Shown here one piece after another: positions 34,242 through 58,184 of a stretch of DNA of 64,000 nt. The notes below the pieces were generated by a model, which saw only the letters and a list, made by a program, of their open reading frames with translations, ran no database searches and was not told the origin of the DNA. This stretch comes from a virus, in the IMG/VR virus record IMGVR_UViG_3300036715_001865, positions 124,001-188,000 of that record; one strand, written 5' to 3'. The position numbers and the translations under genes were made by a program. Position 1 is the stretch's first letter; each line of letters starts with the position of its first letter.

Positions 34242-34273
34242 TACTTCTCCTACTAATACTATTGAGGTTATTT

Positions 34274-35404
34274 ATGAATATAACAAACACAGAATACCAA
34301 ACCATGTTAAAAATTTGTCAGGATGGCACTTTTTATTTTAATGACCAGTCTATAGGAGCTAACTTATTCAGAATGTTTAATTATAGATTGGCTAGTTATA
34401 CAGATTGGTTAGTTGACCCTATCACGTTTGAGATGCGTGGATTGATGGTAGAGATTGATAGTAATGGGGAATTTTTACGAGTTGCATCTAGGCCACCAGC
34501 TAAATTCTTTAATCTAAATGAAACCCCATTTGTGCAAAATGTTGATTTGTCTGTTGGTGGTGTTGTCAATGATAAGTTGGATGGCTCTCTAATGAGTACG
34601 TTTTGGTACATGGATATAAATGGAGTTATCCAACTTGGGGTGAAATCCAAAATGTCTTTGATTTCAGACCAGTGTGTACAAACAACAGAGTATCTCCAAC
34701 AACATCCAATATTGAGACAAGAATTGTTGGATTTAGCCCGTAAAGGATTTACAGTATATTGTGAAATTTGTGGTCCAGATAACCGTATTGTTGTTGGATA
34801 CCAAGAGCGAAAGCTAACAGCATTGGGCATTCGTGATAATATAACTGGGGAAGAATTACCTCCAACAACATCCTCTATATTATCAAATGGTCATTGGGTC
34901 AATCATTTTTATTCAGATGATATAGCAAGTGTTGTATCAGGGATAGATGATTTGGTGGGAATTGAGGGGTATGTAATACAGTTAAATAGTGGAATTCGAT
35001 TCAAAATTAAATCTAACTGGTATCTATCTTTGCATCACTGTAAAGATTCGGTGAATAACCCTCGTAGACTATTTGAGGCTATTGTTGATGAAGGTGTGGA
35101 TGACATCCGTAGTATGTTTCATGATGATGCTTGGTTAATCAATCAAATTGATGAAATGCAAGTAACAGTGGATAAATTGTACAATGATATGGTTTCTGAA
35201 GTGGAACACTTTTATGAAGTGCATAAAGATTTAGACCGGAAAACTTATGCTATTTTGGGGCAAGAATTAGTTACCAAGATGTATTTTTGTTTAGTTATGG
35301 TAAAATATGCCGGTAAAATTCCAGACTATAAAACGTTCCTCAAATCAAAATACAAAGAGTTGGGATTTGTGGATAAGGCTATCAAAGAAACAGTTGAAGA
35401 ATGA
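34274..35404 (+). CDS. T4 Rnl1-like RNA ligase
   Basis: 376 residues from the ATG at 34274, which has GAGG upstream; a start 12 nt earlier is less likely. Lys101 in VNDKLDGSLMS is the adenylated lysine, at nearly the same position as K99 of T4 RnlA. EMRGLMVEI, VYCEICGPDNRIVV and GYVIQLNSGIRFKIK (motifs IIIa-V) follow, then a helical C-terminal domain. Rnl1 seals broken anticodon loops of tRNA after host PrrC cleavage. Here it is also a candidate joiner of the split tRNA halves at 57.8-58.1 kb. Confidence 0.9.
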   Translation: MNITNTEYQTMLKICQDGTFYFNDQSIGANLFRMFNYRLASYTDWLVDPITFEMRGLMVEIDSNGEFLRVASRPPAKFFNLNETPFVQNVDLSVGGVVNDKLDGSLMSTFWYMDINGVIQLGVKSKMSLISDQCVQTTEYLQQHPILRQELLDLARKGFTVYCEICGPDNRIVVGYQERKLTALGIRDNITGEELPPTTSSILSNGHWVNHFYSDDIASVVSGIDDLVGIEGYVIQLNSGIRFKIKSNWYLSLHHCKDSVNNPRRLFEAIVDEGVDDIRSMFHDDAWLINQIDEMQVTVDKLYNDMVSEVEHFYEVHKDLDRKTYAILGQELVTKMYFCLVMVKYAGKIPDYKTFLKSKYKELGFVDKAIKETVEE

Positions 35405-47249: not shown

Positions 47250-47258
47250 AGGTGAAGT

Positions 47259-47618
47259 ATGAGCGAATGTGTTTTTGAAAGAGAGTTGTTATTTCTGGAA
47301 GCTAGATATCCTGTGTTATCGGAGGAAAAATTAAGACAGTTGCCGTGGAATAGATTAAAAAATATAATGGCCCGAGTACGAGCTTTTAATAGTGGGATTG
47401 GTGAGTGGTATGGTATTGATTATCATGAGTCGTGTGATCCACCTGAAGAGTTAGATGAATCCATGTTTTCAACATGGGAAGAACGTAAAGAAGCCATTAA
47501 AATACTGTTAGCTCCACATAGAGAGTATTTTAAGTTGTTGAAAAAATGTGCAGCTGAGCTACCAAATTATCAATTGGTAGAATCCCCTCGGGTAAAGCGA
47601 CACAAAAGAAAGAAATGA
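47259..47618 (+). CDS. Hypothetical protein
   Basis: 119 residues (MSECVFERELLFLEARYPVL), helical, ending in a basic tail (SPRVKRHKRKK) that may bind nucleic acid. Nine bp after the membrane-protein gene. Confidence 0.65.
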   Translation: MSECVFERELLFLEARYPVLSEEKLRQLPWNRLKNIMARVRAFNSGIGEWYGIDYHESCDPPEELDESMFSTWEERKEAIKILLAPHREYFKLLKKCAAELPNYQLVESPRVKRHKRKK

Positions 47619-47623
47619 TTAAT

Positions 47624-47759
47624 GGGTCTTGAAATAAGGATAGACGGTTCTATCGGATGTCTGTAACACATCTCCTTCTTGGCATGCAGTTCAACTCTAG
47701 CCAAGGCCCACCAATTTTAATGCCGGATGATCCAACTGTGAATCCAGTTGCCGGCTCCA
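47624..47759 (+). other. tRNA-like sequences, degenerate
   Basis: First unit (47624-47713): acceptor-like GGGTCTT/AAGGCCC ending in CCA, D-like arm GATA-GACGGTTC-TATC and anticodon-like arm GATGT-CTGTAAC-ACATC. There are 8 extra nt before the D-arm, and the T-arm is not canonical (TTCAACT without a matching stem). Second unit (47722-47759): a small two-hairpin element GCCGG ... CCGGC enclosing AACTG/CAGTT and ending TCCA like tRNA-Gly copy 2. These look like decayed tRNAs or tRNA mimics. Confidence 0.4.
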
Positions 47760-47776
47760 ATTACAGAGGTAACAAG

Positions 47777-48271
47777 ATGAGTGAAACACAAATTGAAGCA
47801 CCAGATGAAGGTGAAGTATTTGGTGAATACCAGTTACATATTAAAACTTGGGAAAACGATGCTGACAACGTCGGGGTAAAGGTAATTTCGGGGTTATCCA
47901 AGACAGATGTTGGTTTTTATGTAGAAGTAGTAAAACAATTTACTAGTTGCAATTCTACCCCATCAGGTTTTGGTAATAGTTCAATTACAGATGATGACCT
48001 AATTACCATTATACAAAAATCATTAGAAAAACATTCTGATGTATCAGACTTAGAGCAAGAACTGTTTGGTGGGTGGGATGAGCTTGATATAGATGACACC
48101 GATAAATTAACATATGCTGCTGATATACTGTATGATAATTTGTGTGTGTATATGTTGGGTTATCCAGAAGATGAGAGTTTTCGAGAACAATATCACTTTT
48201 GTAGAGTGTTTGATAGTTACAAAGTGTTGCATTTTCCTGTTAATGGAAATGATGTAACATCTGAATTTTAA
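47777..48271 (+). CDS. Hypothetical protein
   Basis: 164 acidic residues from MSETQIEAPDEGEVFGEYQL (AGAGG upstream). The frame extends upstream into the tRNA-like elements, which is not coding. Unassigned. Confidence 0.62.
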   Translation: MSETQIEAPDEGEVFGEYQLHIKTWENDADNVGVKVISGLSKTDVGFYVEVVKQFTSCNSTPSGFGNSSITDDDLITIIQKSLEKHSDVSDLEQELFGGWDELDIDDTDKLTYAADILYDNLCVYMLGYPEDESFREQYHFCRVFDSYKVLHFPVNGNDVTSEF

Positions 48272-48279
48272 TAAATTCT

Positions 48280-48354
48280 GGCCGTGTGTCCCAACCTGGA
48301 AGAGGAAGCAGACTTAAAATCTGTTAGTTGTGGGTTCGAATCCCATCACGGCTA
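48280..48354 (+). tRNA. tRNA-Leu(TAA), short variable arm
   Basis: Acceptor GGCCGTG/CACGGCT, anticodon arm GCAGA-CTTAAAA-TCTGT, 5-nt variable loop, T-arm GTGGG-TTCGAAT-CCCAT. Bacterial tRNA-Leu normally has a long variable arm; this one does not. Confidence 0.8.
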
Positions 48355-48360
48355 CTAAAT

Positions 48361-48434
48361 GACCAAGTGTCCCAATTGGAAGAGGAAACAGTTTCAAACT
48401 CTGTTAGTTGTGGGTTCGACTCCCACCTTGGTTA
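48361..48434 (+). tRNA. tRNA-Leu(CAA), short variable arm
   Basis: A close relative of the preceding tRNA. Acceptor GACCAAG/CTTGGTT, anticodon loop TTCAAAC, same short variable loop, T-arm GTGGG-TTCGACT-CCCAC. It shares its anticodon with the permuted Leu tRNA at 57.8 kb. Confidence 0.78.
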
Positions 48435-48569
48435 CATATTTTCACAAGATGAAATGAGGAATTTATGATGAGTAGTAAGATTGGTTTATTACCCATAAAA
48501 ATAGGAGTTGTAATTGGGTTGTAGTAAGGGTTGTATTGTCCTTATTACATCAACAGATTGCAAAATAAT

Positions 48570-48644
48570 ATAGCTGTATTCAAAATGGACAAAGACCGCT
48601 GACTCTCTATCAGCTTTGTGCGGGTTCGATTCCCGTCAGCTATG
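48570..48644 (+). tRNA. tRNA, anticodon CTC (Glu) by geometry
   Basis: Acceptor ATAGCTG/CAGCTAT, anticodon arm GCTGA-CTCTCTA-TCAGC, T-arm GCGGG-TTCGATT-CCCGT. The loop gives CTC with an unusual T37; TCT (Arg) would be the reading if the loop register differed. Confidence 0.75.
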
Positions 48645-48666
48645 CAACAACTTAATGGAAGTTATA

Positions 48667-48960
48667 ATGACTTTAAATATAAAAGATATGGTTAACAATG
48701 GACAAAAGGTTACTTTTGTTTGTTATGGAAGTGGTGAATTGTGGTATGTAACTGATTCGGGGTTTGAGTTCCCAGTACCGATTAGTGATACAGGTGATGG
48801 AATCTTCTTAGCCTCAGACAAAGCAATGTTGTTTATGAGATACATTCGAAAACATATTGCATTTTTAGAAGAAAGTAAACAGCTTCAATTAAAAGAACAA
48901 GAGCGGCATAAAACAGAAGCACAGTTTCACATTGGTGTTTTAGGTATTCCAACACAGTAA
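48667..48960 (+). CDS. Hypothetical protein
   Basis: 97 residues from the ATG at 48667 (MTLNIKDMVNNGQKVTFVCY) with GGAAG upstream. Beta-rich first half, charged C-terminal helix (FLEESKQLQLKEQERHKTEA). Unassigned. Confidence 0.62.
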   Translation: MTLNIKDMVNNGQKVTFVCYGSGELWYVTDSGFEFPVPISDTGDGIFLASDKAMLFMRYIRKHIAFLEESKQLQLKEQERHKTEAQFHIGVLGIPTQ

Positions 48961-48969
48961 TGAATTATT

Positions 48970-49050
48970 GATTAGTAAGGAAAGTAAAAGGAGCATGGGA
49001 AATAGTTGTTACCTCTAATAACAACGGTTGGATACCGCACCTGCTAATCA
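48970..49050 (+). other. tRNA-like element, possible Arg(TCT)
   Basis: Perfect 7-bp ends GATTAGT/GCTAATC and a hairpin TGTTA-CCTCTAA-TAACA whose loop would read TCT. The D-arm is absent and the T-loop (TTGGATA) lacks C56. Probably a degenerate tRNA. Confidence 0.4.
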
Positions 49051-49055
49051 AAAAT

Positions 49056-49128
49056 GCCTCTTAAACTAATCTGGTGAAAGTGCAAGACTGAAAATCTTGA
49101 AAGCCTGGATCGAAACCAGGAAGAGGCA
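49056..49128 (+). tRNA. tRNA-Phe(GAA)
   Basis: Acceptor GCCTCTT/AAGAGGC, anticodon arm CAAGA-CTGAAAA-TCTTG, T-arm CCTGG-ATCGAAA-CCAGG. Confidence 0.88.
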
Positions 49129-49158
49129 CATATTTTAAAACAACTAGGGGATTATAAC

Positions 49159-49377
49159 ATGACACTAGAAATAGTAGCAGTAACAATTTTATCTATCGTA
49201 GTAGGCACTCTAATGTTTACAGCATTGTTGGGAACAATATTCCCAAAATTGGGGCATAAGGTGTTTGGTTGGCATACTGTGAATACCGTTGACAGTTTTG
49301 ATGGTGCTAGTGTACATGGTACTTGTACTGTGTGTCATAAGGATTGTATGCAAGATAGCCAAGGAAATTGGTTTTAA
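49159..49377 (+). CDS. Membrane protein with CxxC tail (DUF1660-like)
   Basis: 72 residues. An N-terminal transmembrane helix (VAVTILSIVVGTLMFTALLG) is followed by a short zinc-type motif, CTVCHKDCMQDSQGNWF, similar to DUF1660 prophage proteins. Function unknown. Confidence 0.65.
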   Translation: MTLEIVAVTILSIVVGTLMFTALLGTIFPKLGHKVFGWHTVNTVDSFDGASVHGTCTVCHKDCMQDSQGNWF

Positions 49378-49395
49378 GAGTTTTAGTATTAACTA

Positions 49396-49558
49396 TGTAG
49401 TGTATTAGGTCGTACAAAGAGACGTTGACTCCGATAATAGTTAGGTCCGGATTGTAATTGTGCAATTATAGATATAGTCAAGTGGGATTACAACAACGAC
49501 TCCTGCTTGATGTTCCTTAAACGACAGCCCTATTAGTTGTCCGGTTTAATACACTACA
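49396..49558 (+). ncRNA. Unassigned structured RNA closed by a 12-bp stem
   Basis: TGTAGTGTATTA (49396-49407) and its exact complement (49547-49558) enclose about 140 nt with further pairings: TCAAGTGGGA with TCCTGCTTGA (around 49479-49510), GACA/TGTC, and TAATAG with CTATTA, which together suggest a compact multi-helix or pseudoknotted RNA. GTCCGG occurs twice inside. No tRNA features, no gene, and a promoter for the next gene follows at once. No known class recognised. Confidence 0.6.
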
Positions 49559-49561
49559 CAG

Positions 49562-49589
49562 TTGATTAAATAATTAAAATAAGTATAAT
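49562..49589 (+). promoter_or_regulatory. Sigma70-like promoter
   Basis: TTGATT, 16-nt spacer, TATAAT, 28 nt before the next ATG. Confidence 0.75.
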
Positions 49590-49616
49590 ACATCTTAAGT
49601 TAGGAGGAAACACATT

Positions 49617-50021
49617 ATGACACCAGCAGAGCAATTAATACAAGATTATGACATTGAAGTAGATATTTGTGACGACCCAAGCGAATTTGCAGATTATTTT
49701 CGCGATTGTGGTAGTGATTACTTTGAATGTGGTCAAGGATTTTATCAAGATGAAGCTACAGTAATTGTCCAACTAGGTGATACTTATTTTAATGTTTATT
49801 TGGAAGCTGAAATTGGTAGTCAAAAAATGGAACGTGGGGAGCGATTTTACTCTGTTGAAAATATCATTAAAGTTGAGTGGGAAGTAATTCCAACACCAGA
49901 GCTAAGAGCTAAATGTCAATACAGTATTGTGGCAACGCTTACAGATTTTGATCAACGAAGATTAGTTGAATATTTTGAAGAACACAATATCAGTCACACG
50001 ATTGATAAGATTTTAATATAA
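49617..50021 (+). CDS. Hypothetical acidic protein
   Basis: 134 residues (MTPAEQLIQDYDIEVDICDD), strongly acidic with beta-strand pattern (TVIVQLGDTYFNVYLEAEIG). GGAGG ribosome site. Possible DNA mimic by charge, but nothing specific. Confidence 0.62.
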   Translation: MTPAEQLIQDYDIEVDICDDPSEFADYFRDCGSDYFECGQGFYQDEATVIVQLGDTYFNVYLEAEIGSQKMERGERFYSVENIIKVEWEVIPTPELRAKCQYSIVATLTDFDQRRLVEYFEEHNISHTIDKILI

Positions 50022-50027
50022 AGAGAT

Positions 50028-50098
50028 GACGTGTTGGTATAGTGGTAGTGCCTAAGTCTGCAAAACTTATGACGGGAGTTCAATTCTCCCACCCGTCT
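50028..50098 (+). tRNA. tRNA-Cys(GCA)
   Basis: Acceptor GACGTGT/ACCCGTC with one mismatch, anticodon arm TAAGT-CTGCAAA-ACTTA, T-arm GGGAG-TTCAATT-CTCCC. Confidence 0.86.
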
Positions 50099-50123
50099 CA
50101 AAAATTAGCAACAGGGGTATAAT

Positions 50124-50684
50124 ATGACCACCATGAACGCAGAGCAGTTGTTACAAAAGATTAAAGCTACCTTGAATAGTGTTGATGAGTTGCAATTATT
50201 GAAACAAGAAGCAATAAAATCAACAAAACAAAACGTAAAAGTAGAAGTAGAAGTTGGTGCTGAAGAAACTGGCCCCATGTCATCTGAACGGTTGGCTGAA
50301 ATTTTAATAGTACATACTGTAACTCGTCCAAATTTGAGAGATGATGAATTTTTTGTATTTGTTGGTCAACAGTTTTTGCGAGATTTGTTTGATGGTGACG
50401 GTGATATGTCTAGTTATGTTAATGTAACTCTTCAGTGTCCTGAACGGTGGCTTAATATTCTTGAACAACGCGCATTATTGATGGCTGTGCAAGTAAGATG
50501 CCCTAAGTTGCAAAAATTACATATTGTAACCCATAGTGTGTATATTTTACAGTGTTCACCAAATGGTACAGTTTTTGTTATTGATGACCCTAGCGAATAC
50601 CCTGAAATACCATATAAAAAAGGGGTAAGATATTCACCTCCAGAAAATCCATCTTCTGGACAGTTAAGTATCTTACATTTGTAA
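50124..50684 (+). CDS. Hypothetical protein
   Basis: 186 residues (MTTMNAEQLLQKIKATLNSV). Helical N-terminus then a mixed body (WLNILEQRALLMAVQVRCPK). No motif recognised. Confidence 0.62.
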   Translation: MTTMNAEQLLQKIKATLNSVDELQLLKQEAIKSTKQNVKVEVEVGAEETGPMSSERLAEILIVHTVTRPNLRDDEFFVFVGQQFLRDLFDGDGDMSSYVNVTLQCPERWLNILEQRALLMAVQVRCPKLQKLHIVTHSVYILQCSPNGTVFVIDDPSEYPEIPYKKGVRYSPPENPSSGQLSILHL

Positions 50685-50691
50685 TAGATAT

Positions 50692-50763
50692 AGTGAATTG
50701 GCAGAGAGGTAATGCACTTCTTTCATATGGAAGGTTAGGTGGGTTCAATTCCCACATTCACTA
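50692..50763 (+). tRNA. tRNA-Met(CAT), second
   Basis: Acceptor AGTGAAT/ATTCACT, D-arm GCA/TGC with GG loop, anticodon arm CTTCT-TTCATAT-GGAAG, T-arm GTGGG-TTCAATT-CCCAC. It may decode Ile (ATA) after modification. Confidence 0.86.
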
Positions 50764-50783
50764 CTAATAAAAGGAAACAACAC

Positions 50784-51035
50784 ATGGCATTATCAAGAGA
50801 TTGGAAAAATCAACGTAGAGTTGATCATTATCGTGAACGAAATTTTGTATTTGGTTGGTTTAAGAATGCAAAAACACAACCAATGTTTTGTATGAGTTGT
50901 AGAAATGAAACTTGCAAAGATACATCTCATCACCGATTTGTGTTACATCCAATTATTCGCATTCCGAGAAAGGGCGCAAGTAAAACCAAATGGAAACAGT
51001 TTTTCGAACAAGTAAAACAGTTTCATGTATTATAG
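50784..51035 (+). CDS. Small basic Cys-containing protein
   Basis: 83 residues from the ATG at 50784 (AAGGA upstream): ALSRDWKNQRRVDHYRERNF, then MFCMSCRNETCKD, a likely zinc site, and a basic tail. Nucleic-acid binding plausible. Confidence 0.62.
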   Translation: MALSRDWKNQRRVDHYRERNFVFGWFKNAKTQPMFCMSCRNETCKDTSHHRFVLHPIIRIPRKGASKTKWKQFFEQVKQFHVL

Positions 51036-51102
51036 GTTGGCCGTTGGTACGGTATTAGGACTCCAAATCCTGATTGAGGGAGATCGTTCCTCCCACAGCC
51101 TG
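51034..51102 (+). tRNA. tRNA-Trp(CCA)
   Basis: Acceptor AGGTTGG/ACAGCCT (last pair G-A), anticodon arm TAGGA-CTCCAAA-TCCTG, T-arm GGGAG-ATCGTTC-CTCCC. Overlaps the stop codon of the preceding gene by 2 bp. Confidence 0.8.
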
Positions 51103-51111
51103 CTGAATTAT

Positions 51112-51202
51112 TCCACCATCACTCATTCGAATCGCGGCTTATGAGTTATTGATGCCGGTGTGGTATCTTGGAGACGAGTAGGTTCAAATCCTACTGGTGG
51201 AG
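51112..51202 (+). other. tRNA-like element with oversized D-arm
   Basis: Perfect acceptor TCCACCA/TGGTGGA and T-arm GTAGG-TTCAAAT-CCTAC. The D-arm is ACTCAT/ATGAGT around 14 nt, and the anticodon-like loop CGGTGTG lacks T33. Possibly an unusual or decayed tRNA. Confidence 0.45.
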
Positions 51203-51226
51203 CTTATTTTAAAATTTGAGGTAACT

Positions 51227-51466
51227 ATGACAGAATTATTGCCATGTCCATTTTGTGGATTTCAACCAGATATTAATGAACCAGATTGTATATATCCTGC
51301 TTGTCGTCCCGAATATGATGCAGATGGAAAAATCACATTCCAATTATATAATTTGGTGTGTTATGAATCAGCAGGTGGTTGTAGTGCTCATGTATTGGGA
51401 TATGACCGAGATGAGTGTATTCGGTTATGGAATACAAGAACTCCAGCTAAGGTGAACCATGAATAA
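51227..51466 (+). CDS. Lar-like zinc-ribbon protein (restriction alleviation type)
   Basis: 79 residues: LLPCPFCGFQPDIN, a central CYESAGGCSAH, and LWNTR at the end match the Lar/DUF zinc-ribbon family (CPFCG ... W N x R). E. coli Rac Lar protects unmodified DNA from type I restriction by modulating the enzyme; that role is inferred here. Confidence 0.7.
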   Translation: MTELLPCPFCGFQPDINEPDCIYPACRPEYDADGKITFQLYNLVCYESAGGCSAHVLGYDRDECIRLWNTRTPAKVNHE

Positions 51467-51791
51467 TCAAGACGCACCAAAAATAACCGCATTTAGTGGA
51501 ATATTTGAAGATAAACTTCATAAATTGGTTAAAAAAATTAAAAAAATTAAGAGATTAAGAAAAGAAAAAGCATCACAAGCGAAGATTAAAATGCTTATTT
51601 CAGAGGCAAAAACGCTTAAGAAGTTAGTTAATAAAATGCCAAATGATAATACTCGTCAAACTATAGAGATTGCTTTGTCAGTTGTTGATGGTAAAATTTT
51701 ATTGAAAGAGAGTTGTGCATCAAATGGTCTTCAATTATACAATGTGCGATATGTTGGTGGATTGTTAATTGTTGAGGTTGATAAAGTTTAA
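51459..51791 (+). CDS. Hypothetical basic protein
   Basis: 110 residues overlapping the Lar-like gene by 8 bp. Lys-rich helix (KLVKKIKKIKRLRKEKASQA) and a beta C-terminus (YNVRYVGGLLIVEVDKV). May be a nucleic-acid-binding partner of the Lar-like protein. Confidence 0.6.
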   Translation: MNNQDAPKITAFSGIFEDKLHKLVKKIKKIKRLRKEKASQAKIKMLISEAKTLKKLVNKMPNDNTRQTIEIALSVVDGKILLKESCASNGLQLYNVRYVGGLLIVEVDKV

Positions 51792-51794
51792 TAT

Positions 51795-51868
51795 GTCACT
51801 GTGATCCAATTGGTAGAGGTGATAGGCTAAGAACCTATTTGTTGCGAGTTCGAATCTCGCCAGTGATA
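51795..51868 (+). tRNA. tRNA-Leu(AAG), short variable arm
   Basis: Acceptor GTCACTG/CAGTGAT, anticodon arm ATAGG-CTAAGAA-CCTAT, T-arm GCGAG-TTCGAAT-CTCGC, 5-nt variable loop. A34-containing Leu tRNA without class II arm is unusual. Confidence 0.8.
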
Positions 51869-51898
51869 CTAAAAGAGTTGTAAAACTTGTTGGTGTGG

Positions 51899-51906
51899 TA
51901 TAAATA
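51899..51906 (+). promoter_or_regulatory. Late promoter TATAAATA
   Basis: Exact consensus inside the small inverted repeat GGTATAAATACC, 31-38 nt before the next gene. Confidence 0.7.
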
Positions 51907-51936
51907 CCACGTCTCATATATAAGGAGTAAAGTGTT

Positions 51937-52428
51937 ATGATGGTTAAAGATTTGTTGGAAAGTAGAGAATCCAGAAGCGAACACACCTGGAATTTGGAAG
52001 CATCTGGACAAATGGATGCCCCTAATGTTAGTGGTGGTGAATATGGGTTAGTGAACAAAGCTGGTAAATTTGTGCGTAAGTCTTTGACAAAAGCTGCCGC
52101 GAATGCTTTATGTACCCGTTCAGACTTGATCGCAAAACATGGTCCATTGAAAGTTCGTCAAATATCTGAAGCTGTTACTGGTGATTCAAGAGAAGAATAT
52201 GATCACAATGCGTTTGGTAACTCACAAGGAACTAATTTTCCTCATGGGGAACAAGCTCAGGATAATATCCGAACATTAAATGATAACACTGATGGTGAAT
52301 ATGGATTAGCTACAGGTAGTAATAAGTTAATTAGACGAGAATTAACAAAGCGGGCAGCTATTGCTCTTAGTAATAGACCTGATTTAATATCTAAATATGG
52401 TAAGTTGTATGCTGTAAAAATGGATTAA
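51937..52428 (+). CDS. Late protein with two KYGKL domains
   Basis: 163 residues. Leader MMVKDLLESRESRS of capsid-targeting type. Two copies of a 40-residue domain follow: EYGLVNKAGKFVRKSLTKAA ... DLIAKHGPLKV and EYGLATGSNKLIRRELTKRA ... DLISKYGKLYA. The same domain occurs at 44405 and 52433. Probably a virion internal protein built from repeats. Confidence 0.65.
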   Translation: MMVKDLLESRESRSEHTWNLEASGQMDAPNVSGGEYGLVNKAGKFVRKSLTKAAANALCTRSDLIAKHGPLKVRQISEAVTGDSREEYDHNAFGNSQGTNFPHGEQAQDNIRTLNDNTDGEYGLATGSNKLIRRELTKRAAIALSNRPDLISKYGKLYAVKMD

Positions 52429-52432
52429 TAAT

Positions 52433-52672
52433 ATGAAAGTTTCAGAGTTGTTAGGAGAAGCTCAAATATTCCAAACACCTCATATTCGTAAGCGATACGA
52501 TAAAAGACGAGATGTTAGACGAAGAGCGACTACATTTAATTTAGTTACAGCCAATGGTCAAGTTGTTGCTTCTGGGTTAACACCACAAAAAGCACAATTA
52601 ATGGTACACGACCAAAGTTTGATACAAAAATATGGTAAACTTTATACCAGAAATATTTTATTCAGACAGTAA
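52433..52672 (+). CDS. Small late protein with one KYGKL domain
   Basis: 79 residues. Leader MKVSELLGEAQIF (LGE as possible protease site), a basic linker (RKRYDKRRDVRRRATT), then FNLVTANGQVVASGLTPQKA ... LIQKYGKLYT. Co-transcribed with the two-domain gene. Confidence 0.65.
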   Translation: MKVSELLGEAQIFQTPHIRKRYDKRRDVRRRATTFNLVTANGQVVASGLTPQKAQLMVHDQSLIQKYGKLYTRNILFRQ

Positions 52673-52680
52673 ATTGCTTG

Positions 52681-52709
52681 TTGACTTAATATATAGTTTA
52701 GTGTATTAT
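52681..52709 (+). promoter_or_regulatory. Sigma70-like promoter for tRNA-Leu
   Basis: TTGACT, 17-nt spacer, TATTAT, 50 nt before tRNA-Leu(TAG). Confidence 0.7.
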
Positions 52710-52759
52710 AAGCGAATATTAAGTCAATAAAGAAAATATTGCTGATGTGGGACATGTTT

Positions 52760-52847
52760 GGGGATATGATGAAATTTGGTAGACGTGCTAGATTTAGATT
52801 CTAGTGTTCGAGAGAGCGTATCGGTTCGAATCCGATTATCCCCACCA
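52760..52847 (+). tRNA. tRNA-Leu(TAG)
   Basis: Class II with normal long variable arm. Acceptor GGGGATA/TATCCCC, anticodon arm CTAGA-TTTAGAT-TCTAG, T-arm ATCGG-TTCGAAT-CCGAT, CCA encoded. Confidence 0.94.
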
Positions 52848-52861
52848 ATATATAACAAGCG

Positions 52862-52890
52862 TTGACATTTTGTTATATATAAAGTATAAT
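52862..52890 (+). promoter_or_regulatory. Perfect-consensus sigma70 promoter
   Basis: TTGACA, 17-nt spacer, TATAAT, 64 nt before tRNA-Pro. Confidence 0.9.
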
Positions 52891-52954
52891 AGATTTTTTA
52901 TTATATAAGAGCTAGAAGACTTGTTGGATTTAATCCTCCCCTTTTAGTGAATTT

Positions 52955-53031
52955 CGGGATGTATTTCAGTCTGGTAGAATGAACCGTTTGGGGCGGTTTG
53001 GCCGCAGGTTCAAATCCTGTCATCCCGACCA
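52955..53031 (+). tRNA. tRNA-Pro(TGG), copy 1
   Basis: Acceptor CGGGATG/CATCCCG, anticodon arm AACCG-TTTGGGG-CGGTT, T-arm GCAGG-TTCAAAT-CCTGT, CCA encoded. Confidence 0.93.
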
Positions 53032-53056
53032 ATAATATTAACTCCATGGATAGTTT

Positions 53057-53326
53057 ATGAAAGAGTTGTTAACAGTAAAGAAAGTTGTATCTGGAATTGC
53101 ATTATGTAGTAGTGATAGTGTAAAAGAATTTACAATGGACTTACCAGAAGAGCATATTGGTAATGGAAAAAGTTTTATTCTTAAACCGGGTAATGAATTA
53201 GAGTTGACTCAAGACGAATTAGGATGTAGAATACGCTGTAATCAAAGTGATAAAGAATTAGTTTTGTTTTTGATTGAAACTGATGATGGATTGGAAATTG
53301 AAGAAACGTATGTTGTAAAGAAGTAA
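53057..53326 (+). CDS. Hypothetical acidic beta-rich protein
   Basis: 89 residues (MKELLTVKKVVSGIALCSSD). Repeated strands and acidic C-terminus (LIETDDGLEIEETYVVKK). Unassigned. Confidence 0.6.
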   Translation: MKELLTVKKVVSGIALCSSDSVKEFTMDLPEEHIGNGKSFILKPGNELELTQDELGCRIRCNQSDKELVLFLIETDDGLEIEETYVVKK

Positions 53327-53330
53327 AATT

Positions 53331-53401
53331 AGGGGATTCGTATATTGGTGGTACACTACTCTTTGACAGTAGTAGAAATGGTTCGATTCCATTATCCCCT
53401 G
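53331..53401 (+). tRNA. tRNA-Gln(TTG)
   Basis: Acceptor AGGGGAT/ATCCCCT, anticodon arm CTACT-CTTTGAC-AGTAG, T-arm AATGG-TTCGATT-CCATT. Confidence 0.9.
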
Positions 53402-53408
53402 CAAAATG

Positions 53409-53470
53409 TTGTTGCAAAGAGAAAGTGTTACTTCTTGGTGAAAAAACACACTTACTCATTTATATCTCAA
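53409..53470 (+). repeat. Intergenic element, copy 1
   Basis: About 62 nt: TTGTTGCAAAGA, then AGTGTTACTTC, then ACACACTTA and ending TATATCTCAA. AAGTGT pairs with ACACTT. It lies between tRNA-Gln and tRNA-Glu; copy 2 precedes tRNA-Ile. Confidence 0.7.
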
Positions 53471-53477
53471 CTTTTTT

Positions 53478-53551
53478 GTTCTTGTCGTCTAAAGGTTAAG
53501 GATATCGGTCTTTCAAATCGATGATGTTGGGTTCAAGTCCCACCAGGAACG
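53478..53551 (+). tRNA. tRNA-Glu(TTC)
   Basis: Acceptor GTTCTTG/CAGGAAC, anticodon arm TCGGT-CTTTCAA-ATCGA, T-arm TTGGG-TTCAAGT-CCCAC. Confidence 0.9.
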
Positions 53552-53559
53552 CTTATTAA

Positions 53560-53945
53560 TGTAACCTTAAAGTTAAAGGGCCCTAGCGAGGATGTAGGGA
53601 AATAGAGGATCTAACCTCTCATTGATAAACCCACCAAATTGCAATTTGGTGAGGTTATAATAATAAAACTGATAAGAGTCTGTGGCAACGGGTTTTTATT
53701 AAACAAACATTACACAAAAAAGAGATGTTGAACCACGTTTGCACGAAAGTGTAAAGAACAATACGTTGTGGTGACGTTATAACTCGAAGTAGGGTAGTGA
53801 CGAAGGTCACCAACCTTCCATCTACGTCGATGAAATCCGGGCAAACCGAAAGAGTTACGCCGTTATTAGCCACTTGTAAGAATAGTTAAAGGTCTAATAC
53901 ATTAGTGGTGGTATTAGCGGAATTTTTAAATGTGTTAACAAAATA
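53560..53945 (+). ncRNA. Large structured RNA of unknown class in tRNA cluster
   Basis: About 385 nt without a supported gene. Visible helices: AACCTC/GAGGTT enclosing CACCAAATT/AATTTGGTG (53613-53656); TTTGCAC-GAAA-GTGTAAA with a GNRA tetraloop inside ACCACG/CGTTGTGGT (53730-53773); GTGAC-GAAG-GTCAC near 53797. Size, multiple helices, GNRA loop and position inside a phage tRNA cluster recall ornate phage RNAs such as GOLLD and ROOL, but I cannot match either. A minus-strand frame here is a shadow. Confidence 0.55.
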
Positions 53946-53949
53946 TATA

Positions 53950-54014
53950 TTGTTGCAAAGATTGAGTGTTACTTCATTATTAGAAACCAACACACTTAAT
54001 CGTTTTTATCTCAA
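53950..54014 (+). repeat. Intergenic element, copy 2
   Basis: About 65 nt aligned end to end with copy 1: TTGTTGCAAAGA, GAGTGTTACTTC, CACACTTA, TTTATCTCAA. TTGAG pairs with CTCAA and AGTGT with ACACT, giving a hairpin 7 nt before tRNA-Ile. Confidence 0.7.
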
Positions 54015-54020
54015 TATTAT

Positions 54021-54092
54021 TGGTCCATAGCTCAGAGGCAGAGCGCACCCCTGATAAGGGTGAGGTCGGGATTTCAATATTCCCTGGACCAA
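54021..54092 (+). tRNA. tRNA-Ile(GAT)
   Basis: Acceptor TGGTCCA/TGGACCA, D-arm GCTC/GAGC, anticodon arm CACCC-CTGATAA-GGGTG, T-stem GGGA/TCCC with a slightly irregular loop. Confidence 0.88.
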
Positions 54093-54103
54093 CAAAATTA
54101 TCG

Positions 54104-54194
54104 ATGCAAATCAAACAGTTACTTCTTTTACTTGATATAAAAACCTGACGGTTCGATTCCGTCGTAGAGTGGCCTCGGATGCTATCTGTTTGCA
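54104..54194 (+). other. tRNA 3'-half remnant, possibly Ser(TGA)
   Basis: Anticodon-like arm TTTTA-CTTGATA-TAAAA, T-arm GACGG-TTCGATT-CCGTC and a 3' strand GTAGAGT are present, but there is no D-arm and no partner for the acceptor strand on either side. CAAACAG/CTGTTTG encloses the unit. The first part weakly resembles the repeated intergenic element (GTTACTTCTT). Confidence 0.45.
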
Positions 54195-54206
54195 ACCATT
54201 AACTCG

Positions 54207-54662
54207 ATGAATTTATTTTATGTTACTGATAAAGAGGAAACTGTGGAAGTGATATTAACAAAAATTTGCACAGGGTGTCAAACAGAGAAAAAAGTTATAG
54301 AGTTTCGAAAACGAAGTAACAGTAAGGATGGATTTGCATCTTGTTGTAAAGTTTGTGCCGATGTTGGTTCTGAAAAGTGGAGACAACTAAATTTAGAAAA
54401 AAGAAAAATTCAGTCAACAAAGTTGGTGTATGATACACAACTAAGATTTAATGAGTGGAAAAAAGAACAAGGTTGTAGTTGTTGTATGGAAAATGAACCA
54501 GTGTGTTTAGATCTACACCATTTAGATCCATCAAAAAAAGATGGACACCCGTCCATGTTTGTAAAATATGGGTGGAATAGATTAATGAAAGAAGCAACTA
54601 AGTGTATAGTTGTTTGTAGAAACTGCCATGCGAAAATTCACGCTGGTATGATAAAATTGTGA
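54207..54662 (+). CDS. HNH endonuclease
   Basis: 151 residues. Zinc pairs CTGC/CKVC, then LDLHHLDPSKKDG and CIVVCRNCHAKIHAG give the HNH nuclease core as in McrA/phage HNH proteins. It lies between tRNA-Ile and tRNA-Pro, typical of a homing nuclease using a tRNA cluster as a site. Confidence 0.82.
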   Translation: MNLFYVTDKEETVEVILTKICTGCQTEKKVIEFRKRSNSKDGFASCCKVCADVGSEKWRQLNLEKRKIQSTKLVYDTQLRFNEWKKEQGCSCCMENEPVCLDLHHLDPSKKDGHPSMFVKYGWNRLMKEATKCIVVCRNCHAKIHAGMIKL

Positions 54663-54667
54663 TTTTG

Positions 54668-54742
54668 CAGTCTGTAGCCAAGCGGTATGGTGCATCATTT
54701 GGGGTGATGAAATCGGGAGTTCGATCCTCCCCAGACTGACCA
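54668..54742 (+). tRNA. tRNA-Pro(TGG), copy 2
   Basis: Acceptor CAGTCTG/CAGACTG, D-stem GCC/GGT, anticodon arm CATCA-TTTGGGG-TGATG, T-arm GGGAG-TTCGATC-CTCCC, CCA encoded. Confidence 0.92.
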
Positions 54743-54748
54743 ACATAT

Positions 54749-54819
54749 GCGAGTATAGTTTAAGTGGTAAAACGCCGGTGTCCAACTGGTATTATTGGCT
54801 CGAAACCAATTATTTCGCT
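54749..54819 (+). tRNA. tRNA, probable Gly(TCC), atypical
   Basis: D-arm GTTT/AAAC with GG loop, anticodon arm GCCGG-TGTCCAA-CTGGT (G at position 33), T-arm ATTGG-CTCGAAA-CCAAT, acceptor GCGAG/TTCGC plus a bulge. Imperfect; identity uncertain. Confidence 0.5.
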
Positions 54820-54844
54820 CAAAATTAATTAATAAGGATAACCG

Positions 54845-55240
54845 ATGATAACATTGAGAAATAAATCAGTAAATGTTCCAAGAGATGTATTAATCAACTA
54901 TCTTAGAGCTAATTTGGAACTTCATAAAGCGCAGTTTCAAGAAGCGGTTGAAGTATATCAGAAAAGATTGCAATTTGAATTGCAGGAAGCGTTGGATGTA
55001 GTTGCTGGTCAAATCAACTTTGATGCCTTGTCTAAAGTTAGAGTGTCCTTCAATCCACCACAATCACACGAAAGTGATTATGTGGAAATTTTGGAAATGA
55101 TGGAGATGTCAGTTGATGACACCATTAATCTTGATTCCGAAAGTTTCAGAGCTTACATCAAGAATGAGTGGTCTTGGTCTGCAGGATTAACCAATTTAAT
55201 TGAAGCAAACAAAGTTTATTTATCAAGTAAATTGTCCTAA
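54845..55240 (+). CDS. Hypothetical protein
   Basis: 131 residues (MITLRNKSVNVPRDVLINYL), helical coiled N-terminus (LELHKAQFQEAVEVYQKRLQ) and acidic body. Conserved-looking phage protein, unassigned. Confidence 0.62.
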   Translation: MITLRNKSVNVPRDVLINYLRANLELHKAQFQEAVEVYQKRLQFELQEALDVVAGQINFDALSKVRVSFNPPQSHESDYVEILEMMEMSVDDTINLDSESFRAYIKNEWSWSAGLTNLIEANKVYLSSKLS

Positions 55241-55249
55241 GGAAGAACT

Positions 55250-55444
55250 ATGCCAATATATGAATATAAGTGTGATGCTTGTGATCACACCCTCGAAAAG
55301 ATCCAAAAATTCTCAGATGATCCATTATTGGAATGTCCTGAATGCAAAGAACCTAAATTGGTAAAATTGATCTCTCAAGGTAATTTCTGTCTTATGGGTG
55401 GTAACTGGCACAATCCGGGAATGCACGCTAGTCGGAAAAATTAA
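55250..55444 (+). CDS. FmdB-type zinc-ribbon protein
   Basis: 64 residues: MPIYEYKCDACDHTLEKIQK then LECPECKEPKLVKLIS, the CxxC/CxxC putative regulatory FmdB family. Small nucleic-acid-binding zinc ribbon; role in the phage unknown. Confidence 0.82.
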   Translation: MPIYEYKCDACDHTLEKIQKFSDDPLLECPECKEPKLVKLISQGNFCLMGGNWHNPGMHASRKN

Positions 55445-55600
55445 ATGTCAAGCCAAGAAGAATTGGATTGGTTGTATAGAATGAGTGAGTTAGAAGATAG
55501 TTGGGATTTACCACATATTATGGCATGTAGTCCAGAAATATATCAACAGATTCTAGCTCATCAAAAAATCGATATCATGGATGACTCTGACGAAAATTGA
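55445..55600 (+). CDS. Very small acidic protein
   Basis: 51 codons, ATG overlapping the previous stop (TAAATG): MSSQEELDWLYRMSELEDSW. Coupled to the FmdB-like gene. Unassigned. Confidence 0.55.
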   Translation: MSSQEELDWLYRMSELEDSWDLPHIMACSPEIYQQILAHQKIDIMDDSDEN

Positions 55601-55609
55601 GGTTATATT

Positions 55610-55849
55610 GTGACAGTTAAAGTTATTAGTTTTACTCCATATCGACACATTAGTACTGTCCATATTGATGATAGTTGGTCTCAAGAAAGAATCGATGAGG
55701 CTATTGAATACCAAAGAAATTTAGATAAATTACATTGTTTATATCATGACCACAAAACAAATTTTGCATCAGATTGTGGTGAAGACGAAAAAGAAATTTA
55801 CCGGTTAAGTAGACTATTAGATGATTATGATGTAAAATATCCGTATTAA
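55610..55849 (+). CDS. Small hypothetical protein
   Basis: 79 residues from a GTG with GAGG upstream (MTVKVISFTPYRHISTVHID). Acidic with helical body. Unassigned. Confidence 0.58.
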   Translation: MTVKVISFTPYRHISTVHIDDSWSQERIDEAIEYQRNLDKLHCLYHDHKTNFASDCGEDEKEIYRLSRLLDDYDVKYPY

Positions 55850-55858
55850 GCAACAATT

Positions 55859-55942
55859 GGAGAGTAAAGCTAGGGGGCCCTAGCAACATCCTGCTAAGAT
55901 GATTGAACCGAAAGGTTTTCATTTCGATTATGATGCTCTCCG
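55859..55942 (+). tRNA. tRNA-Ser(GCT)
   Basis: Class II. Acceptor GGAGAGT/GCTCTCC, palindromic D-arm GCTAGG/CCTAGC, anticodon arm CATC-CTGCTAA-GATG, variable arm AACC-GAAA-GGTT, T-arm TCAT-TTCGATT-ATGA. Confidence 0.82.
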
Positions 55943-55954
55943 CGTAACACAATT

Positions 55955-56041
55955 GGAAGATGAACCAACCAGGGCGTTGGACCTACCTTGAAAGTAGTGG
56001 GATGATTAATTTCATTGGGCTTCGAGTGCACCCGTCTTCCA
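55955..56041 (+). tRNA. tRNA-Ser(TGA)
   Basis: Class II. Acceptor GGAAGAT/GTCTTCC, D-arm CCAAC/GTTGG, anticodon arm CTAC-CTTGAAA-GTAG, variable arm with ATGA/TCAT, T-loop TTCGAGT with a partly paired stem. Confidence 0.82.
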
Positions 56042-56063
56042 CAAACATTAATAGAAGAATTAT

Positions 56064-56531
56064 ATGGTTAAAAAATACGATGCTCAAAAAATTCAAGAGA
56101 TAAAGGAAATATTACCTACAGTTCATTCATATACAGAACTAGCTAAATCATTGGGTAGAGTTGATATTACATATTTATCTGCCATATGTAAGCGAGAACA
56201 ATTGGATACCACACATTTTGTTGGCTCACATAGGTTCCAAAAGGGACATATATCATCCACAAGACGGTCCGACTATGATGTATTTATAACAAATTCCACG
56301 TATTGTAGGAGATTAATCAAGCAGCGAATACTTGACCAAAACTTAATGGAATATAAATGTGCTATATGTAACATCGGACCAGTTTGGAATAACAAGCCAA
56401 TGCCATTGATATTAGACCACATTAACGGTATAAACAATGACAACAAACTAACAAATTTAAGATTTGTGTGTAGTAATTGTGATTCACAGTTGGACACATA
56501 TAAGTCAAAGAATAGAAGATTAAAACAATAA
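56064..56531 (+). CDS. HNH homing endonuclease with N-terminal HTH
   Basis: 155 residues. A short helix-turn-helix (YTELAKSLGRVDITYLSAIC) is followed by CAICNIGPVWNNKPMPLILD, HINGINNDN, NLRFVCSNCDSQ and a TYKSKNRR tail: the classic phage HNH arrangement. Directly downstream of tRNA-Ser(TGA). Confidence 0.9.
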   Translation: MVKKYDAQKIQEIKEILPTVHSYTELAKSLGRVDITYLSAICKREQLDTTHFVGSHRFQKGHISSTRRSDYDVFITNSTYCRRLIKQRILDQNLMEYKCAICNIGPVWNNKPMPLILDHINGINNDNKLTNLRFVCSNCDSQLDTYKSKNRRLKQ

Positions 56532-56547
56532 ACACAGGAGTTTCTCT

Positions 56548-56928
56548 ATGGTTGCTATTTCTACTGGCATATGTGTATTATCAGAATATGATAATGCTAT
56601 TTTCTTCAAAGCCCAATGTGGGTGTGCAAGTTCAGATGATGAACAACATTTGTGTATGTCATATAATGACGATTTGCAAGATGTTGAGTTGTTAGTTTCA
56701 TGTAAAGTCACTACTGAATATTTCCCATCATCTTATGATGATACCTTGTGGGAATCTGTTGGTAATTGGGTATCTGCACAGTTGTTTAAAGTTAAACAGG
56801 TGTATCGATTGCTTACAACTGGTGTATTAACTGCAGAAACATCATTTTTGTTTGAGTCAGAGGCTCAAATTCAAGATTACATCACAGCTCTTCAACTGGG
56901 GCTAGAAAAATTAAAACGGGATAAGTAA
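56548..56928 (+). CDS. Hypothetical protein
   Basis: 126 residues (MVAISTGICVLSEYDNAIFF). Mixed alpha/beta, C-terminal helix. Unassigned. Confidence 0.62.
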   Translation: MVAISTGICVLSEYDNAIFFKAQCGCASSDDEQHLCMSYNDDLQDVELLVSCKVTTEYFPSSYDDTLWESVGNWVSAQLFKVKQVYRLLTTGVLTAETSFLFESEAQIQDYITALQLGLEKLKRDK

Positions 56929-56941
56929 TTATCCCGGACAG

Positions 56942-56970
56942 TTGATTTTTCATATCAATAATTGTATAAT
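56942..56970 (+). promoter_or_regulatory. Sigma70-like promoter
   Basis: TTGATT, 17-nt spacer, TATAAT, 32 nt before the next gene. Confidence 0.8.
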
Positions 56971-57001
56971 AGATTTTTAAATTAGAAGAGGAATTAATCA
57001 G

Positions 57002-57775
57002 ATGGCACATAAAACAAAATTGCATGAGATTCTTGCAGTAGAATCAGGTAAAGAAGGTTACTTCAAATCAGCATTGGTTGAAATGACCAATTTATTCAAA
57101 AACAAAGCAAACCATTTTAATGGATTCAATAAAAATTTGACTCTATTTGGTGATGAAACTCCAGAAAAAATTGCAAAAGAAAAAGCGGCTGCTGAATCAC
57201 AGGCATTAACTGCAACTGTGGAATCTGAACTTGCTTATTTGGCTGAAGTGGTTTCTTCTTATGTTGACGTTTTCTATCAAAAAGATGATGCCAATCAACG
57301 TGCTGTTGCAGACATCATTGTAAATGGTGTAGTTATTGCAACTGGCATCCCAGCAACAACTTTGTTGGGCCTGGAAAACAAATTGAAACAGTTGCGTCCG
57401 ATTTATGATCAGATTCCAACGTTACAACCAGGAACAAACTGGGAATTGAATCCAGCGCTGGGTAAAGGTGTTTATATTGATAGAGACCAACAAGTTCGAA
57501 CCACCACCAGAAAAGGTTTTGCATTTAAAGAAATTTCGCCTGCTACTGAGAAGTTTCCAGCTCAGATCGAGCGTTGGGAAACAGTAGATGACATCGGGTA
57601 TACTACTTTGACTCGTTGGACTGGTATGATTTCAGTTGCAGAAAAAGTTGATTTGTTAAAACGTTTTGATGCAGTAATGCACGCGGTTAAACAAGCTCGT
57701 CAACGTGCAAATGAAGTTGAAGTTCACAATGTCAATTTGGGTAAAGTATTAATGGAAGCCATTAACGGCTTCTAA
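57002..57775 (+). CDS. Conserved hypothetical protein (DUF7873-like)
   Basis: 257 residues: MAHKTKLHEILAVESGKEGY, a helical middle, and a C-terminal signature (WETVDDIGYTTLTRWTGMIS ... ANEVEVHNVNLGKVLMEAI) that I associate with a family shared by large phages and some bacteria. Function unknown. Regular codon use and a strong promoter suggest an abundant protein. It directly precedes the permuted tRNA genes and may share their transcript. Confidence 0.65.
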   Translation: MAHKTKLHEILAVESGKEGYFKSALVEMTNLFKNKANHFNGFNKNLTLFGDETPEKIAKEKAAAESQALTATVESELAYLAEVVSSYVDVFYQKDDANQRAVADIIVNGVVIATGIPATTLLGLENKLKQLRPIYDQIPTLQPGTNWELNPALGKGVYIDRDQQVRTTTRKGFAFKEISPATEKFPAQIERWETVDDIGYTTLTRWTGMISVAEKVDLLKRFDAVMHAVKQARQRANEVEVHNVNLGKVLMEAINGF

Positions 57776-57824
57776 CAAGTTTGAGATAAGTTTATCGTCA
57801 ATATTATCGTTAAAGTTATAGATT

Positions 57825-57926
57825 GATAATCTGGTAGAAATACCAACTGGAGGTTCGATTCCTCCCTGGCCCACGAAGAAACAAATATGGGTCGGTGCCG
57901 GAATGTGGTATACGGGGATTGTTCAA
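57825..57926 (+). tRNA. Circularly permuted tRNA-Leu(CAA), 3' half first
   Basis: The 3' half (57825-57873) comes first: GA, anticodon-stem strand TAATC (57827-57831), variable arm TGGTA-GAAA-TACCA, T-arm GGAGG-TTCGATT-CCTCC (57849-57865), acceptor strand CTGGCCC (57866-57872), discriminator A. A 15-nt linker (57874-57888) leads to the 5' half: acceptor GGGTCGG (57889-57895; all 7 pair with CTGGCCC, two by G-U), Leu-type D-arm CCG/CGG with TGG in the loop, anticodon strand GATTG (57917-57921) and loop TTCAA with anticodon CAA. GATTG pairs with TAATC. Flanks TTGAGATAA (57781-57789) and TTGTCTCAA (57940-57948) also pair. The break is in the anticodon loop. No conventional partner half exists on either side. 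Confidence 0.85.
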
Positions 57927-57990
57927 TTGTTTTATCGTATTGTCTCAACAAGTTTATTAGATGGATAATAGTAGTAAGCAACACAAGAAT

Positions 57991-58089
57991 AATTTTGAAT
58001 GCTATGGGTTCGAGTCCCATTCTGTGCACTAACCAAACAAAGCTATAATTATGCACCGGTAGGTCAATGGTAGACCGTCAAATTTTTAT
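57991..58089 (+). tRNA. Circularly permuted tRNA-Lys(TTT), 3' half first
   Basis: The 3' half comes first: anticodon-stem strand TTTGA (57994-57998), 5-nt variable loop ATGCT, T-arm ATGGG-TTCGAGT-CCCAT (58004-58020), acceptor strand TCTGTGC (58021-58027), discriminator A. A 24-nt linker (58029-58052) leads to the 5' half: acceptor GCACCGG (58053-58059, 6 of 7 paired), T8 A9, perfect D-arm GGTC-AATGGTA-GACC, G26, TCAAA (58078-58082) pairing perfectly with TTTGA, and anticodon TTT (58085-58087) after T33. Flanks ACACAA (57981-57986) and TTGTGT (58099-58104) pair. Lys is not covered by any ordinary tRNA found in this window. Confidence 0.85.
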
Positions 58090-58153
58090 CTTCCCTTATT
58101 GTGTAAGACTGAAAGTATTAACGCCCATCAAATCCAATTATAGGATAATTATT

Positions 58154-58184
58154 AAACCGCCGGTTAGGTTAAACCGGCGGTTTT
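58154..58184 (+). terminator. Rho-independent terminator ending the tRNA cluster
   Basis: AAACCGCCGGTT and its exact complement (12 bp) with a 6-nt loop, followed by TTTT. Confidence 0.93.

What the first reader, a model, noticed from the sequence alone, without database searches (positions are those of the whole stretch)
57781..57948. Circularly permuted tRNA-Leu(CAA) gene in a phage
The 3' half (T-arm and acceptor CTGGCCC) precedes the 5' half (acceptor GGGTCGG, Leu-type D-arm, anticodon CAA) with a 15-nt linker. Acceptor (7/7 with wobbles), anticodon stem (GATTG/TAATC) and a flank helix (TTGAGATAA/TTGTCTCAA) all pair, and neither half has a conventional partner nearby. Permuted tRNA genes are known from Cyanidioschyzon and some archaea, where a BHB splicing enzyme joins them; I know of no characterised phage example. 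The break falls inside the anticodon loop, so a mature tRNA needs end joining or must work as two pieces.
Basis: partly seen in the sequence, partly recalled or inferred. Interest (0 to 1): 0.95.

Follow-up and report, generated by a model that had tools for sequence, protein, structure and literature searches.

The report
Phage Y RNA built like permuted tRNA
The backwards-ordered tRNA gene in this giant phage is most likely not a tRNA for making protein but one of about five Y RNAs, small RNAs that carry a tRNA look-alike on a stem expected to bind the Ro60 protein; Y RNAs with this layout are already known, but here the look-alike is unusually complete.

Summary
Window 57781-57948 holds the 3' half, a 15-nt linker and the 5' half of a class II tRNA-Leu(CAA), and ARAGORN calls the rejoined halves a perfect tRNA. 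The better explanation is a Y RNA. In Y RNAs of the YrlA kind the tRNA-like module is circularly permuted: the acceptor stem is closed by a loop and the anticodon end runs into a Ro60-binding stem. The Lys element matches Rfam YrlA (E 1e-4, below gathering). The 3' flank of the Leu element is the 7th best of 380,702 genome positions for the Ro-stem strand learned from other phages. A model built only from other phages has all five suspected Y RNAs of this window as its top five hits in 184 kb. Related phages carry the same stem with covarying pairs, often beside a Ro60 gene, and have Leu-type modules with a canonical Ro stem. No bulge-helix-bulge splice motif was found. No Ro60 gene lies in this 190-kb contig, which is probably about half the genome. 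A spliced permuted tRNA is unlikely but not excluded, since the phage also encodes RNA ligase 1.

The parts
57781..57949 (+). Leu-type Y RNA (the reported element): candidate Ro stem flanks around a circularly permuted class II tRNA-Leu-like module
57781..57799 (+). candidate 5' Ro strand TTGAGATAAGTTTATCGTC (weak match to phage consensus GTTGCGTAGATAAGAGTTACTTC); model R1 prefers an alternative start at 57815
57827..57873 (+). tRNA 3' half: anticodon stem 3' strand, class II variable arm, T-arm, acceptor 3' strand, discriminator A
57874..57888 (+). 15-nt linker closing the acceptor stem as a hairpin loop
57889..57928 (+). tRNA 5' half: acceptor 5' strand, Leu-type D-arm, anticodon stem 5' strand, CAA
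57931..57949 (+). 3' Ro strand TTTATCGTATTGTCTCAAC; 7th best of 380,702 positions in the contig for a weight matrix trained on other phages
57974..58109 (+). Lys-type Y RNA; Rfam YrlA (RF02553) match 33.9 bits, E 1.1e-4 (gathering 69)
57994..58028 (+). Lys-like tRNA 3' half
58053..58089 (+). Lys-like tRNA 5' half with UUU in anticodon position
54103..54208 (+). Y RNA of a type shared with G002, L057, L062, L063 and L080: Ro stem and T-arm only
53952..54015 (+). Y RNA: Ro stem without tRNA module, directly upstream of tRNA-Ile
53411..53471 (+). Y RNA: Ro stem without tRNA module, directly upstream of tRNA-Glu
34262..35404 (+). T4 RNA ligase 1 homologue (PF09511 plus PF20819, the T4 Rnl1 C-terminal domain); part of the rival explanation
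58155..58184 (+). GC-rich hairpin followed by T-run, probable terminator downstream of the Leu and Lys elements
   Evidence: read directly

Best explanation
The reported element and its neighbour are phage-encoded Y RNAs of the YrlA kind. The two ends of each RNA pair into a stem that the ring-shaped Ro60 (TROVE, Rsr) protein is expected to bind. The top of that stem continues into the anticodon-stem end of a tRNA-like module. Because the RNA enters and leaves the module at the anticodon end, the module is read 3' half, closed acceptor hairpin, 5' half, which is a circularly permuted tRNA. It acts as a structured RNA, not as a decoding tRNA: it tethers Ro60 to a tRNA-binding or RNA-degrading partner (PNPase in Deinococcus) and/or serves as a tRNA decoy during infection. 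Shown here: the layout, the conserved covarying Ro-type stem in related phages, Leu-type modules on canonical Ro stems in relatives, and Ro60 genes in those phages. Inferred: Ro60 binding, the partner, the role in infection, and that the matching Ro60 gene lies in the unsequenced part of this genome or in the host.
For: Rfam YrlA matches the Lys element over its full length, E 1.1e-4, and scores similar phage elements 39-45 bits. The Leu 3' flank ranks 7th of 380,702 positions for the Ro 3' strand learned from other phages; element 53952 ranks 5th. Both Leu flanks together: p about 0.001. Model R1, built from 13 elements of other phages, finds the Lys, 53952, 54103, Leu and 53411 elements as its top five hits in 184 kb. 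In that alignment the Ro stem pairs covary at 7 of 8 positions, and the whole structure scores 0.834 against 0.12-0.22 when slid. G002 37756-37894 (60.6 bits) and G013 935-1081 (44.7 bits) are Leu-type modules with a long variable arm on canonical Ro stems; neither was used to build R1. Ro60 (PF05731) is present in 8 of 12 motif contigs, including all three of at least 345 kb; those three share the tail sheath with this phage, G013 at 71% identity. Y RNAs sit beside Ro60 in L055, L058 and G013. Published: bacterial Y RNA superposes on tRNA with a circular permutation (PMC11472068); some jumbo phages carry TROVE, which in cells works with a tRNA-like partner (PMC7824862).
Against: No Ro60 gene in this 190-kb contig. 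Rfam YrlA scores stay below gathering (33.9 for Lys, 16.8 for Leu). The Leu 5' Ro strand is weak and its position ambiguous; the Lys flanks do not match the phage Ro consensus (p 0.26). R1 separates Leu (21.4 bits) only narrowly from the tmRNA (19.1) and a tandem tRNA pair (18.5). The Leu module keeps a complete anticodon arm, more than a Y RNA is known to need.
Confidence: 0.8

Rival explanations
1. A true permuted tRNA gene: flanks are removed, the anticodon ends are sealed (for example by the phage RNA ligase 1), and the linker is cut out of the circle by tRNA end-processing enzymes to give a decoding tRNA-Leu(CAA) and tRNA-Lys(UUU).
For: The rejoined module is a complete tRNA with correct anticodon loop, class II arm and discriminator A. 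The phage encodes a full T4 Rnl1 with its C-terminal domain. No tRNA-Lys was called by ARAGORN in the contig.
Against: No strict bulge-helix-bulge. The flank stem is conserved and also occurs without any tRNA. Related modules lack acceptor stems or have degenerate anticodon loops. An ordinary tRNA-Leu(CAA) already exists at 48361. Rnl1 is common in phages and explained by tRNA repair.
Confidence: 0.08
2. Y-RNA-shaped decoy without Ro60: the tRNA-like module titrates host anticodon nucleases or tRNA-modifying enzymes, and the stem only stabilises it.
For: No Ro60 in this contig. Named phages XaC1 and XbC2 have YrlA-like permuted modules but no TROVE gene. A decoy role for YrlA was proposed in PMC7790460.
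Against: The stem sequence is conserved as in phages that do encode Ro60.
Confidence: 0.08
3. Decayed remnant: 3' and 5' halves left from a tandem tRNA array after deletion of the outer halves, with no function.
For: It lies in a tRNA-rich region, and ordinary tandem tRNA pairs also give weak YrlA scores.
Against: Acceptor (7/7), T, D, anticodon and variable-arm pairs are all intact; the flanks match the Ro stem; two modules sit side by side; relatives conserve the layout with compensatory changes.
Confidence: 0.04

Closest known systems
Bacterial Y RNA YrlA (Rfam RF02553; PDB 6CU1)
   Same: Terminal stem, then T-arm, acceptor stem closed by a loop, D-arm and back to the stem: a circularly permuted tRNA (PMC11472068); the Lys element aligns over the whole model
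   Different: Below the Rfam gathering score; the Leu module keeps a class II variable arm and a full anticodon arm; clustered in a tRNA array rather than beside Ro60 in this contig
Y RNAs of other phages (for example L055, L058, IMGVR_UViG_3300003322_000571)
   Same: Ro-type stem and permuted tRNA-like module, including Leu-type modules
   Different: Those carry the canonical GTTGCGTAG...GTTACTTC strand and Ro60 genes; the window Leu and Lys elements diverge in the 5' strand
Permuted tRNA genes of Cyanidioschyzon and archaea
   Same: 3' half precedes 5' half with a short linker
   Different: Those are spliced at a bulge-helix-bulge by a tRNA endonuclease to give a decoding tRNA (from general knowledge); no such motif here
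Two-piece (permuted) tmRNA
   Same: Acceptor-end loop closed, permuted order; the phage has one at 5837-6164
   Different: tmRNA carries an mRNA-like tag region; no tag here

Membership tests
Y RNA (YrlA kind) | tRNA-like module with T, acceptor and D arms in circularly permuted order | tested here: met
Y RNA (YrlA kind) | conserved Ro60-binding stem formed by the two ends | tested here: inconclusive
   Leu 3' strand rank 7 of 380,702 and both flanks p 0.001; Leu 5' strand weak; Lys flanks fit YrlA but not the phage consensus
Y RNA (YrlA kind) | score above the Rfam gathering threshold (69 bits) | tested here: not met
   33.9 bits (Lys), 16.8 bits (Leu); phage elements found beside Ro60 genes reach only 39-45 bits, so this cut-off, a curation limit rather than a biological feature, is too strict for phage Y RNAs
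Y RNA (YrlA kind) | encoded with or near a Ro60 (TROVE) gene | tested here: inconclusive
   absent in this 190-kb contig, present in the roughly 350-kb relative G013 and in 8 of 12 motif contigs
Y RNA (YrlA kind) | binds Ro60 and an effector such as PNPase | not testable with these tools
   needs protein-RNA binding assays
Permuted tRNA gene | 3' half before 5' half, all tRNA helices intact | tested here: met
Permuted tRNA gene | bulge-helix-bulge at the two anticodon-loop ends | tested here: not met
   no strict BHB in either element
Permuted tRNA gene | joined, end-processed tRNA is made | not testable with these tools
   needs RNA from infected cells

The most novel reading that the evidence does not exclude
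The permuted Leu and Lys transcripts are cut from the Ro-type stem, sealed at the anticodon by the phage RNA ligase 1 and matured through a circle into decoding tRNAs, so one locus would give both a Y RNA and a tRNA. This would be the first spliced permuted tRNA in bacteria or phages known to me.
Probability: 0.06. Interest if true: 0.95.

Novelty: new variant of a known kind. Interest (0 to 1): 0.55.

Why it matters
It removes a tempting but probably wrong claim of a spliced permuted tRNA in a phage. It also points to something useful: giant phages carry sets of Y RNAs whose tRNA-like parts look like different tRNAs (Leu class II, Lys, Glu-like), some nearly intact, and in relatives the same Ro stem is joined to a tRNA in both circular permutations. 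That makes it testable how a tRNA becomes a Y RNA, and why phages with large tRNA sets and RNA repair enzymes also carry Ro60 partners. Current Rfam thresholds miss these RNAs, and permuted-tRNA finders would report them as permuted tRNA genes.

Tried and rejected
(1) Small intron in permuted intron-exon layout: my first reading, when GTTGCGTAG...GTTACTTC turned up inside ordinary-order tRNAs of G002. Dropped because the motif also stands alone, lies beside Ro60 genes and its permuted modules match YrlA. (2) Group I intron or other Rfam ribozyme: no Rfam match, and the flanks are too short. (3) Relatives through the flanking genes DUF7873 and RdgB: none in viral contigs; the tail sheath worked. 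(4) BLAST of the locus against named phages: no match. (5) RtcB in this phage: none. (6) YrlA hits of about 20-28 bits in named phages (XacN1, Paride, Munch): these are ordinary tandem tRNAs, and the family also rings in 10 of 14 control genomes at E <= 0.05, so low scores were discounted. (7) Free-energy z-scores do not support either element (-0.98 Leu, +1.39 Lys). (8) The bacterial genome scan gave only chance-like matches.

Full report
What is there. Put back in tRNA order, they form a perfect class II tRNA-Leu(CAA) for ARAGORN. ARAGORN finds no tRNA at the site in the given order, with or without introns. A second permuted module begins about 65 bases after the end of the first 5' half: 3' half 57994-58028, 24-nt linker, 5' half 58053-58089, tRNA-Lys(UUU) when rejoined. 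The window is bases 124001-188000 of a 190,391-bp linear IMG/VR virus contig. It is a myovirus with portal, tail sheath and Ad2 genes and a full T4 RNA ligase 1.

How the reading changed. Relatives found through the tail sheath (70% identity) include G002, a 183-kb contig with 52 tRNAs, two clear permuted modules and a recurring sequence GTTGCGTAG...AGTTACTTC. A scan of viral contigs for that sequence gave 13 contigs, several with permuted tRNA-like modules between GTTGCGTAG...GTTACTTC and a ...CG..TTT.TCTCA strand. Two further patterns gave more. This is the plan of bacterial Y RNAs of the YrlA kind. A 2024 structural comparison states that bacterial Y RNA (6CU1) and tRNA superpose with a circular permutation (PMC11472068). 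YrlA has a terminal stem that holds Rsr/Ro60 and a tRNA-like domain with D, T and acceptor arms that binds PNPase (PMC8394870).

Tests. (a) Rfam YrlA against the window: the Lys element at 33.9 bits, E 1.1e-4, full length; the Leu element only 16.8 bits, E 0.4. Comparable phage elements score 39-45 bits, also below the gathering score of 69. Tandem ordinary tRNAs give about 18-28 bits, so only the higher scores mean something. (b) Structure: 13 elements from other phages, aligned with a stated structure of Ro stem, T, acceptor and D helices, form standard pairs in 95% of cells; 20 of 24 pairs change on both sides somewhere; the covariation score is 0.834 against 0.12-0.22 for slid versions. 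The Ro stem alone covaries at 7 of 8 pairs. (c) A covariance model of those 13, with no sequence from this genome, ranks Lys (E 9e-5), 53952 (3e-4), 54103 (0.007), Leu (0.008) and 53411 (0.017) as the top five in 184 kb. The permuted tmRNA and a tandem tRNA pair follow closely, so the Leu score alone is not decisive. (d) Flanks alone: the Leu 3' strand TTTATCGTATTGTCTCAAC is the 7th best of 380,702 positions for a matrix trained on other phages, and both flanks together reach p about 0.001. The 5' strand is weak and its place is ambiguous between 57781 and 57815. (e) Leu-type modules with a long variable arm on canonical Ro stems occur in G002 (37756-37894, 60.6 bits) and G013 (935-1081, 44.7 bits), neither used in training.

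Ro60. TROVE genes are in 8 of the 12 other motif contigs, including all three of at least 345 kb. Those three carry the same tail sheath as this phage; G013 is 71% identical. Motif elements lie next to Ro60 in L055 and L058 and about 1 kb upstream of it in G013. This contig has none. At 190 kb against 345-360 kb for the relatives it is probably about half a genome, so absence is not informative.

Both permutants. In G002 (two cases), G013 and L057 there are tRNA-like genes in ordinary order, with 7/7 acceptor pairs, whose anticodon loop is replaced by a closed Ro-type hairpin, for example CGTTTTTGTCTC-GCGTAAGC-GTTGCGTAGACAAAGAGTTACTTC. Rfam scores three of them as tRNA with a long insert: 40.4 and 31.2 bits in G002 and 40.8 in L057. 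The same fold is thus met with its ends at either place. The simplest view is that the fold, tRNA-like module plus Ro stem, is what matters, not production of a linear tRNA. This remains inference.

Why not a spliced permuted tRNA. No strict bulge-helix-bulge exists. The flank stem exists alone at 53411 and 53952. Two related modules (L056, and L059 at 702) lack an acceptor stem. An ordinary tRNA-Leu(CAA) is present. The RNA ligase 1 and the intact anticodon arms keep the idea alive at a few percent.

Literature limits. I could not read the 2014 survey of bacterial Y RNAs (Chen et al.). That it reported Y RNAs in phages is from memory, supported by PMC7765460, which says several phages are reported to have YrlA. 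A search for permuted tRNA with phage found no report of a permuted phage tRNA.

Noticed in passing
L060 1611-1738 (-) and 8956-9085 (-); L145 about 1590-1740; L057 3137-3269: tRNA-like genes in ordinary order with a closed Ro-type hairpin in place of the anticodon loop, acceptor 7/7 paired: the opposite circular permutant of the same fold.
   Followed up: partly
window 5837-6164 (-): A phage-encoded permuted (two-piece) tmRNA, tag ANSENYALAA, closest to the betaproteobacterial type, hinting at a betaproteobacterial host.
   Followed up: no
L105 and L106 (Xanthomonas phages XbC2 309671 and XaC1 328915): YrlA matches of about 41 bits with permuted tRNA modules on a different stem (TTTGGAAT..AACAGCAA / ATTCCAGT.TTAAT), in named phages without a TROVE gene.
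   Followed up: partly
L117 / G008:232966-233031 (-): Permuted tRNA-like module closed by a 10-bp flank helix GCAGGATAAT/ATTATCCTGC without the usual Ro strand.
   Followed up: no
window 55867-56045: By eye, two tRNA-Ser-like genes (GCU and UGA anticodons, with unusual D- or T-arms) that ARAGORN and Rfam do not call.
   Followed up: no
window 48280-48435: Two tRNAs called Leu (UAA, CAA) with short class I variable loops, although Leu tRNAs normally have a long arm.
   Followed up: no
window 45169-58109: ARAGORN calls no tRNA-Lys in the whole 190-kb contig; the only Lys-like sequence found is the permuted module.
   Followed up: partly
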